From: Romanomermis culicivorax
Taxonomy: Eukaryota > Nematoda > Enoplea > Mermithida > Mermithidae
Length of the DNA: 64,000 nucleotides
Reading direction: 5' to 3'
Assembly (NCBI GenBank): GCA_963922205.1
Contig: CAWUHX010000251.1
Coordinates: 1 to 64,000, forward strand
Part shown: piece after piece, positions 34,815 through 36,620 of the stretch
How positions within the stretch are numbered: position 1 is the first letter of the stretch
How the letters are laid out: the number at the start of each line of letters is the position of its first letter
Notes under the pieces: generated by a model
What the model saw: only the letters and a program-made list of their open reading frames with translations
What the model was told of the DNA's origin: nothing
Database searches by the model: none
Made by a program: the position numbers and the translations under genes

Positions 34815-36620
34815 TCAAAATCGTAAGGGGACAAATCCGAACCGATTTTGCCACGCGTATACCCCTTTTTTAGATGGAAAGTGGGGTTCTGACGGCGGTA
34901 GCGTTGCTGCTAGCTCTAAATAATAAGCCAGGCGGTCGCCTGACTTCCAGGACATTCTCTTTATCATTTCCTGTCCTTCTCTAGTATAACTATTTAAAAA
35001 GTTATAATTCAGCAGAGTGCTAGTTTCGTAATTGCACTCCGCTCTTGAGTGAGGCCATGCCAAGTGATAGGCCAATGGCATGAATTTACAGATGACCTCT
35101 AACTCCGCAAAGTTTCGCTCATCTAACATACCTGAAATTTCGGCCAAATTTGGCGTATAAAAATTGGTCTTATAGGTCTGTCTGTGACCTTCAATACCCA
35201 CTGGGTAATGGTTATTAGAAGAAAACACTTCCTGTGGGATGTCATCGGGCTTCCCGGCTTGTTGCCAGTATAGCTTGGTGTTTTCATATAACGTCAAAGA
35301 AATCTTACTGTCTAAATCCCAATAGGTTCCACCTGACTTGAGATTTTCCAAGATATTCTTTGCGATGTTAACCCAGTCTGGTATCTGAACGTCCTGGATT
35401 TCGTCGGGATGACTGTCTTCAGTGTATCCCTCGTCCTTCATCGGTTTATTATCTCTGGGGAGCAGTGGGTAGAAACCACTTGGCAGTTGAACTCCCTGAG
35501 GACGCACGGGATTACACTCCGTGGGTGCGGTATAATAACCGGTGTTATTTCCCTGCATTTGTACGGCCCAACGGTTGTACATTTCACATTTCATCATGTG
35601 ATAGACCATGTTAGGCTGTACCTGATCGGTTTCCATGACTGGGGTGCCTAGGCCCATTTCTCTATTCACATTGCCTGGAATCATTAAGTATTGTTGGTAA
35701 AAATGTAGGGCAACGGTATTGATCTGTTTGGGATCAACCTTGTAATGATCGAAAATCTGCATTTGCATTAGCAGCTGATCGGCCATGCCATAGTGAATCG
35801 CGGCAAACATGACCAATAAAGAGTAATATGCATCTAATGCAGCGTACCTAAGCTCTTCCGGCAATATACCTCTTTTGGCAAACCGATCATGGTTCGCCTT
35901 TAATGAAAAGTCATATTGATAAGGGCCCACGTCTATCAAATAGAAATCCGTGAACAGTCCCTTTAACCGAAAGGTTTCGGGACAAATACCTGTCTGAAAA
36001 CACTTTTTCTCCAGGTTAACCCCTACCATGGTTAGGGCGAAACGGTCTAAATCGAAGTACCGACCTTTGGTCTTCCTTAGATGTTCCCGTAAGGGCACAG
36101 TTTTATCCCTGTCCTTATTTTCTCGCCCTGCACCACATACGTTATAAATACTCACCAAATCCTCCAATACCGAGTATCCGGCGAACAGCATGTCGGAATT
36201 CAAAAGGTCGTGGAGGCTGGTCCATTCTTTGAGTATCATGGTCGTGGTATCGATAATGTAGGTTTGACCGTTGGTTAACGCGAAGCTCACATATCAGGCA
36301 AATTGTTTCCCCATTGGATTGTCGACCTCTCTCATTTTAAACAAGGCGGCAACTTTATCCTGATGGACTTTTTCGACATCAAATCCACAAACTGGTTGTC
36401 CTCTGAAGATTGAAACTTCTCGGATGAAGTGGAGTACCTGGCTGACTTTCCCGATGTCTACCATTCTAGGTTCCTTGGGATTAGCCGGCCAGTACCCAAA
36501 TGTGGCCTTGAACCACTGATCCAGTTTGTGGATTCGCACGACCTTCTTGATGTTATAATCTAAACATAAGATACTATTAATTTTAGTGTTTATTCCCCTT
36601 TTTTCAGCGCATTTTTGGGT
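34815..36620 (-). CDS. Element B accessory frame: DEDDy 3'-5' exonuclease domain
   Basis: Nuclease of the RNase D/WRN type, predicted to remove nucleotides from 3' ends. Motif I: PVCGFDVEKV (Asp codon 36380-36378, Glu 36374-36372). Motif II: LFAGYSVLEDLVSIY (Asp 36161-36159). Motif III: PEELRYAALDAYYSLLVMF (Tyr four residues before Asp 35834-35832). All five catalytic positions of the DEDDy class are present and correctly spaced. A TGA at 36296-36294 splits motif I from the rest, in frame. The open frame begins at 36620 after a TAG; there is no ATG before motif I except RMVDIG, so it may start there or be spliced on (TTATGTTTAG at 36562 could be an acceptor). After the domain follow about 330 residues of unknown type. 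It is antisense to A and colinear with B pol, which supports it being part of B. Confidence 0.78.

What the first reader, a model, noticed from the sequence alone, without database searches (positions are those of the whole stretch)
34815..36620. Retrotransposon carrying a DEDDy 3'-5' exonuclease domain
Downstream of an otherwise ordinary Gypsy gag-pol, and in the same orientation, lies a long frame with all five DEDDy motif residues (FDVE, GYSVLED, YAALDA) correctly ordered. I know of no Ty3/Gypsy element with an RNase D/WRN-type exonuclease. By analogy with exonucleases of some RNA viruses (coronavirus ExoN, arenavirus NP), it could proofread, trim cDNA or RNA ends, or remove small or double-stranded RNA used in silencing. 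The role is inference; the motifs are seen.
Basis: partly seen in the sequence, partly recalled or inferred. Interest (0 to 1): 0.88.

Follow-up and report, generated by a model that had tools for sequence, protein, structure and literature searches.

The report
Nematode retrotransposons carrying an exonuclease gene
Two kinds of jumping genes in a mosquito-parasitic worm carry, besides their usual copying genes, their own gene for an RNA/DNA-trimming enzyme, a combination known before from bdelloid rotifers, and here it is preserved by selection and repeated across the genome.

Summary
The host is Romanomermis culicivorax. The window copy is a decayed, 3'-truncated member of a large family (B). 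Elsewhere the exonuclease sits in an ORF3 of about 1,519 codons, RGG-tailed in the copy read; 58 of 87 scored places have uninterrupted frames of at least 1,500 codons, and 47 of 87 have a listed integrase match 1.48-1.53 kb upstream. A second Gypsy lineage (X) carries a homologous exonuclease ORF3, over Pfam's PF01612 cut-off, between LTRs 97-100% identical. dN/dS is mostly 0.05-0.15 in both. So it is an element gene, not a host gene captured once.

B itself has no Pfam or PDB sequence hit; its identity rests on motifs and on colinear similarity to X. The one fold attempt failed. The idea is not new: Rodriguez et al. 2017 reported DEDDy ORF3s in bdelloid Juno, Vesta and Athena elements. New here are the phylum, the giant RGG-tailed ORF3, the scale and the selection. 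Function is inferred: RNA 3' trimming, possibly of unprotected silencing RNAs.

The parts
44701..45321 (-). 5' LTR of element B (TGTTGGG...CAACA); PBS-like stretch adjacent at 44682-44699
   Evidence: Ends located; aligned to the LTRs of the C69 and C132 copies
40502..44685 (-). gag (by position, no Pfam match), aspartyl protease and start of RT of B, broken by in-frame stops
   Evidence: ORFs; PF13975 2.1e-11, PF00078 1.3e-18; other copies 86-91% identical
38603..40498 (-). RT end, RNase H, integrase H2C2 and start of integrase core
   Evidence: PF17917 3.1e-31, PF17921 4.4e-17, PF00078 1.2e-11
37769..38599 (-). Integrase core end and C-terminus
   Evidence: PF13683 1.3e-5 (just under its curated cut-off), PF00665 0.017
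36660..36900 (-). 240-nt non-coding block upstream of ORF3, 97-99% identical between C132 and three other copies (other 60-column stretches 73-98%); role unknown
36593..36605 (-). Polypurine-tract-like GAAAAAAGGGGAA at the start of the ORF3 frame
   Evidence: role not tested
36294..36620 (-). Start of the ORF3 frame with ExoI (GFDVE); closed by TGA at 36294
34815..36293 (-). ORF3 frame with ExoII (GYSVLEDL) and ExoIII (YAALDA) of the DEDDy-type exonuclease domain, and following region
32946..34814 (-). ORF3 continuation: P/Q-rich, acidic and basic region, no credible family match
32415..32945 (-). Last part of ORF3 present in the window; copy truncated at about 32415, RGG tail and 3' LTR missing

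Best explanation
Element B is a Ty3/Gypsy-type LTR retrotransposon of the mermithid nematode Romanomermis culicivorax. In the place where retroviruses have env, it has a third gene of about 1,519 codons: an N-terminal DEDDy-type (RNase D/WRN-like) 3'-5' exonuclease domain, a long low-complexity middle and an RGG-rich, probably RNA-binding tail. The window holds one old, stop-broken, 3'-truncated copy. A second Gypsy lineage in the same genome (X) has its own ORF3 with a homologous exonuclease. Shown: linkage, repetition, intact frames, selection, similarity of the two domains, invariant catalytic residues in X. Inferred: ORF3 is made from a spliced mRNA (no ATG precedes ExoI in the C132 frame, and a YAG acceptor-like site lies there in 4 of 4 copies), binds RNA through its RGG tail and removes nucleotides from RNA 3' ends. 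My preferred target is the host's transposon-directed small RNAs, whose 3' ends should be unprotected because piRNAs and HENN-1 are reported missing outside nematode clade V (PMC4323106, passages). Likelihood: element-encoded DEDDy-type domain about 0.9; active nuclease given that, about 0.85; small RNAs as the main target about 0.35.
For: Repetition and integrity: 87 scored matches (of 3205 first-look candidates; the window is one) to the window's 491-aa piece, each covering at least residues 2-489, the others 93-96% identical; 59 of 87 in frames of at least 1,500 codons, one of which (C450) is listed with a TAG inside, so 58 without. Linkage: 47 of 87 (window included) have a listed integrase match 1481-1532 nt upstream on the same strand, 0 on the wrong side or strand within 5 kb, although only 140 of 6839 integrase candidates were scored. 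Anatomy: C132 copy with a 1529-codon ORF3, RGG tail, LTR pair 99.35% identical over 615 bp and a 4-bp TGGT duplication; its pol has one stop in the part read. C69 and C388 copies have the same gene order. Similarity: X exonuclease ORF PF01612 1.4e-10, 41.7 bits against cut-off 23.6, PDB phmmer best hit WRN 7e-4; B against X local z 8.3, 0 of 1000 shuffles, motifs in register in the global alignment; 36 control windows at most z 1.5. Catalysis: D82, E84, D171, Y267, D271 invariant in 8 of 8 aligned X-type rows, chosen from more at hand. Selection: dN/dS 0.061-0.139 in 5 B comparisons; 0.052-0.145 in 8 and 0.401 in 1 of 15 X-type pairs, 6 undefined because dS was saturated. Host: assembly size and scaffold number equal R. 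culicivorax v2; a UniRef R. culicivorax protein matches a copy at 145/147 and 75/78 residues.
Against: B's own sequence has no credible Pfam or PDB match, even for an intact copy. Profile-profile comparison of B with X found only the ExoIII stretch (probability 13%) or nothing, and hmmsearch with an X profile gave the B domain only E 0.02. The only structure prediction, on the window piece without ExoI, was of no use (mean pLDDT 44.4). Some B copies have lost ExoI residues: GFNVE in L038, FDVQ in L016. The residue counts for B ExoII are conditioned on the search pattern. No expression, splicing or enzyme data exist here. The small-RNA target is inference only, and Rodriguez et al. saw no unambiguous link of ORF3 with copy number.
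Confidence: 0.75

Rival explanations
1. The enzyme works on the element's own nucleic acids: it trims 3' ends of genomic RNA, tRNA primer or minus-strand cDNA in the particle, or proofreads reverse transcription.
For: The gene is kept beside pol in two lineages. Rodriguez et al. name RNA 3'-end processing first among possible roles (passage).
Against: ORF3 is a separate frame behind the IN stop, not part of the pol frame, so packaging with RT is not assured. X copies without recognisable RT keep it, which argues against a pure proofreading role.
Confidence: 0.3
2. The domain is a catalytically dead DEDD fold used for RNA binding, like EXD1 or Maelstrom (as described in PMC5408684, passage).
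For: Some copies lack ExoI residues (L038, L016). The RGG tail suggests RNA binding.
Against: The catalytic residues are present in the window, C132 and C69 copies and are invariant in 8 of 8 aligned X-type rows, under strong selection.
Confidence: 0.1
3. B's ORF3 is not an exonuclease; the three motifs are a coincidence in an orphan protein.
For: No credible Pfam or PDB match; weak profile comparison.
Against: Similarity to X at z 8.3 with the motifs in register and 0 of 1000 shuffles as good, strongest at the exonuclease position and at most 1.5 in 36 control windows.
Confidence: 0.08
4. A host gene (RNase D, WRN, EXD or Mut-7 type) lies next to or was captured by this one copy only.
For: None found; cellular exonucleases share the domain.
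Against: 86 other scored places carry the frame, 47 of 87 with integrase at the same distance; three copies read in pieces have the same order, with LTR pairs seen for C69 and C132; frames of about 1,519 codons run without introns.
Confidence: 0.01

Closest known systems
DEDDy ORF3 of bdelloid rotifer LTR retrotransposons Juno and Vesta (Rodriguez, Kenefick and Arkhipova 2017, PMC5408684)
   Same: RNase D-like DEDDy exonuclease encoded as ORF3 of LTR elements; acquired in at least two lineages; ORF3s missing from the earliest branches (paper passages)
   Different: Other phylum (Nematoda); ORF3 of about 1,519 codons with an RGG tail in B; X copies keep it without recognisable RT; thousands of first-look candidates; strong purifying selection, whereas the paper reports no significant departure from neutrality. 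No sequence link to rotifer ORF3s was found, but the search was insensitive
DEDDy ORFs of Athena/Terminon Penelope-like elements (same paper)
   Same: Same enzyme type carried by a retroelement
   Different: Different element class; B and X are LTR elements with integrase
Cellular DEDDy exonucleases WRN, RNase D, Rrp6, Mut-7
   Same: Same motifs and PF01612 domain, shown for X
   Different: Host genes; only distantly similar (X against WRN E 7e-4; B no hit)
ERI-1 and other host siRNA-degrading exonucleases (recalled)
   Same: 3'-5' exonuclease acting on small RNAs is the proposed working analogy
   Different: ERI-1 is DEDDh and a host protein (recalled); no family membership claimed

Membership tests
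Ty3/Gypsy LTR retrotransposon | PR, RT, RNase H, IN in this order (gag in front) | tested here: met
   Pfam matches for PR, RT, RNase H, IN in order in the window and for RT, RNase H, IN in C132; gag only by position, no Pfam match
Ty3/Gypsy LTR retrotransposon | Flanking LTRs with TG...CA ends and short target duplication | tested here: met
   C132 copy: 615-bp pair at 99.35%, TGTTGGG...CAACA, TGGT duplication; the window copy has only the 5' LTR
DEDDy 3'-5' exonuclease (PF01612 group), family X | Profile match over the curated cut-off and D-x-E, D, Y-x3-D | tested here: met
   41.7 and 51.2 bits against 23.6; residues invariant in 8 of 8 aligned rows
DEDDy 3'-5' exonuclease, family B (the finding) | Five catalytic residues in order | tested here: met
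   Window, C132, C69
DEDDy 3'-5' exonuclease, family B (the finding) | Profile match over the Pfam cut-off | tested here: not met
   No PF01612 match for window, C69 or C132; similarity only through X
DEDDy 3'-5' exonuclease, family B (the finding) | RNase H-like fold | tested here: inconclusive
   Mean pLDDT 44.4 for the piece without ExoI
DEDDy 3'-5' exonuclease, families B and X | Enzyme activity | not testable with these tools
   No wet data
Bdelloid-type DEDDy ORF3 lineage | Common descent with Juno/Vesta ORF3 | tested here: inconclusive
   Protein searches returned only R. culicivorax, but they require shared 5-residue words and one search scored only part of its candidates

The most novel reading that the evidence does not exclude
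Two distinct nematode Gypsy lineages carry a mobile exonuclease cassette that destroys the host's unprotected (non-2'-O-methylated) transposon-silencing RNAs. If so, the loss of piRNAs and HENN-1 in clade I nematodes opened a route by which an element-encoded 3'-5' exonuclease becomes a silencing suppressor, which would help explain why so much of this genome is transposons (289 of 359 Mb in one passage of PMC10879605, 68.2% repeats in another).
Probability: 0.2. Interest if true: 0.88.

Novelty: new variant of a known kind. Interest (0 to 1): 0.6.

Why it matters
It shows that exonuclease-bearing LTR elements are not a bdelloid peculiarity: the combination also occurs in another phylum, in two lineages of one genome, one of them abundant, and under strong selection, so it probably pays the element. 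That makes an open question testable, namely what an LTR element gains from an exonuclease, in an animal group reported to lack piRNAs and with a transposon-rich genome. It also warns annotators that a downstream ORF3 is not always env.

Tried and rejected
Single-copy host gene capture: rejected. Chance motifs: judged unlikely. A fold of the window piece without ExoI gave no usable model, so no fold search was run. HHalign of B against X was uninformative. Protein database searches reached only R. culicivorax. Rfam gave one chance-level match. RNA folding of 201 nt around the ORF3 start was not better than shuffles (z 0.74). No matching conserved block was seen upstream of X's ORF3 in two comparisons. 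Similarity of B's ORF3 tail region to the X tail reached only z 3.0 and is not claimed. A host check by Rfam SSU did not complete; the host was identified instead. Genome-wide counts of an ORF3 word and of the conserved block did not complete. Not tried: fetching rotifer ORF3 sequences.

Full report
What is in the window. On the minus strand, 44685..37769 holds a Ty3/Gypsy gag-pol region (aspartyl protease, RT, RNase H, integrase by Pfam; gag by position only). Behind it, in the same orientation, one reading frame runs from 36620 to 32361 with stops at 36294 (TGA), 34815 (TGA) and 32946 (TAA). GFDVE, AGYSVLEDL and RYAALDA lie in it in order; the TGA at 36294 stands between the first and the other two. 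The copy (element B) starts with a 5' LTR at 45321..44701 and is truncated at about 32415, inside ORF3. It lies inside a plus-strand Gypsy element A whose LTRs are at 26810-27647 and 48114-48921. So the window copy is broken and incomplete.

Where it is from. The genome has 359,112,060 bases in 595 contigs; the published R. culicivorax v2 assembly has 359.1 Mb in 595 scaffolds (PMC10879605, passages). A UniRef R. culicivorax protein and a frame at C313 agree at 145 of 147 and 75 of 78 residues.

It is a family, and the gene belongs to it. The window's 491-residue piece matched 87 places (87 scored of 3205 first-look candidates; the window itself is one), each over nearly the full length; 59 of the 87 lie in frames of at least 1,500 codons, most often 1,519, one of them (C450) with a TAG inside. 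A query from a divergent public relative gave 244 matches from 150 scored of 1784 candidates; several matches can be pieces of one place. Integrase gave 140 scored of 6839 candidates. Of the 87 exonuclease places 47, the window included, have a listed integrase match upstream on the same strand at 1481-1532 nt (median 1502), and none has one on the wrong side or strand within 5 kb. The other 40 have no integrase match among the 140 listed, which neither supports nor refutes linkage for them. Three further copies were read in pieces: C132 (ORF3 of 1529 codons, LTR pair 99.35% over 615 bp, TGGT duplication; its pol carries one stop in the part read), C69 (LTR pair 91.8% over the 526 bp held) and C388. 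C69 and C388 have protease, RT, IN, exonuclease and ORF3 rest in this order; for C132 only the part from late protease/RT on was read.

ORF3 anatomy. In C132 the frame has no ATG before ExoI, and an acceptor-like YAG stands at the start of the homology in 4 of 4 copies; I infer a spliced mRNA. The N-terminal part carries the exonuclease. The middle is rich in P, Q, E and K, and the end is RGG-rich (4 RGG in all; 10 of the 14 RG dipeptides lie in the last 81 residues). Pfam finds no family in it. Upstream lies a 240-nt non-coding block, 97.1, 97.1 and 98.8% identical to C132 in C69, C388 and the window, against 73-98% in other 60-column stretches; synonymous divergence from C132 in the exonuclease region is 0.39 (window), 0.72 (C69) and 1.24 (C388). 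Its role is unknown; a splicing, export or packaging signal is conceivable, and recent gene conversion is not excluded.

Is it an exonuclease? B alone gives no credible Pfam or PDB hit. The help came from a second family. PF01612 matched 80 places in the genome, 13 of them in frames of at least 600 codons, one with a TAG inside. Ten X-type copies, chosen among the best matches, were fetched with flanks: 10 of 10 have an LTR pair of 617-629 bp at 96.9-100% identity. The copy analysed (C69, L009/L010) has a CCHC motif, RNase H, integrase and an ORF3 of 608 codons; its ORF3 matches PF01612 at 41.7 bits against a cut-off of 23.6, and a PDB sequence of WRN at 7e-4. Several copies have 608-610 codons, others shorter frames. 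No RT was recognised in that copy by Pfam or in the ten copies by tblastn with two RT queries (RT hits in those loci lie in other, opposite-strand elements), but the X-relatives L031 and L033 have RT stretches. The intact B domain aligns with the X domain at local z 8.3, with 0 of 1000 shuffles as good; ExoI, ExoII and ExoIII are in register in the global alignment. Control windows of other proteins reach z 1.5 at most (36 windows), while the B exonuclease windows reach 9.0 (C132), 6.2 (C69) and 6.5 (window). Against this, hhalign and an X-built HMM gave only weak support, and the fold attempt failed. In eight aligned X-type rows, chosen from more at hand, the five catalytic residues are invariant. 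Among eight B sources, ExoI was found in seven and has D-x-E in five of them; the two without (L016, L038) lie in copies with short, broken frames.

Selection. Codon comparisons give dN/dS 0.061, 0.069, 0.070, 0.079 and 0.139 for B. For X-type, 15 pairs of 6 frames: 8 between 0.052 and 0.145, one 0.401 (L033 with L031), 6 undefined because dS was saturated. These are simple Nei-Gojobori values on pairs that share branches, so they are not independent.

Two lineages. In small trees of pieces (13 integrase, 9 RT rows; LG+G4, ultrafast bootstrap) a branch separates B (with its relative L022 in the integrase tree) from X, A, C, L009 and L012 with support 96 (integrase) and 99 (RT); X grouping with A, C and L009 has only 78 and 74. 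A B-relative in L022 gave no B-exonuclease match by tblastn and no open frame of note behind its integrase, but that stretch looks decayed. A and C have a viral-type fusion glycoprotein match instead. So the exonuclease was gained more than once, exchanged between elements, or gained once and lost often; the sampling is too small to decide.

Mechanism. Shown: gene, linkage, integrity, selection. Inferred: RNA 3'-5' exonuclease with RGG RNA binding. For R. [quoted passage not shown] Its silencing RNAs should therefore have free 3' ends, a natural substrate for such an enzyme (the analogy to ERI-1 is recalled). The alternative is work on the element's own RNA or cDNA. That X copies without recognisable RT keep the gene argues against a pure proofreading role.

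Known and new. Rodriguez et al. 2017 (PMC5408684; passages of several sections and section 9 read) describe DEDDy ORF3s in bdelloid Juno and Vesta and in Athena elements, acquired at least twice, and discuss RNA 3' processing or a silencing role. A 2019 opinion (PMC6338049, one passage) already calls a DnaQ-like exonuclease a well-known accessory domain of LTR elements, citing that paper and others; a 2017 review repeats it for rotifers (PMC5718144, passages). The claim of no precedent thus fails. In my searches (only open-licence PMC papers, listings mostly) I saw no report of it in nematodes. I file this as a new variant of a known kind.

Noticed in passing
window 26810-48921 (element A) and 50337-59597 (element C), plus strand: Two Gypsy-type elements have a Monjiviricetes-type fusion glycoprotein match (PF24664, 1.7e-12 and 1.9e-16) between gag/CCHC and protease/RT, not behind integrase. 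An env-like gene in front of pol is an unusual order; one paper search requiring six terms listed nothing.
   Followed up: partly
window 36660-36900, minus strand: 240-nt non-coding block upstream of ORF3, more conserved than its flanks in the 4 B copies compared.
   Followed up: partly
window 36593-36605, minus strand: Polypurine-tract-like GAAAAAAGGGGAA at the ORF3 start, possibly a second (central) PPT; no similar tract was obvious in the 60 nt before the 3' LTR of C132.
   Followed up: no
G000:C158:182213, 187991, 193769 (and 457249): Partial PF01612 matches at three places spaced 5778 bases apart: a tandem array, possibly of a host gene or of an element piece.
   Followed up: no
P0001 (UniRef, R. 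culicivorax) and L003: Public gene model that seems to fuse an RNase T/DnaQ-like exonuclease (PF00929) with a remnant of an X-type element; probably a prediction artefact.
   Followed up: partly
L031:1443-2882, minus strand: X-relative whose RT and exonuclease lie in one open frame of 480 codons, apparently by an internal deletion.
   Followed up: no
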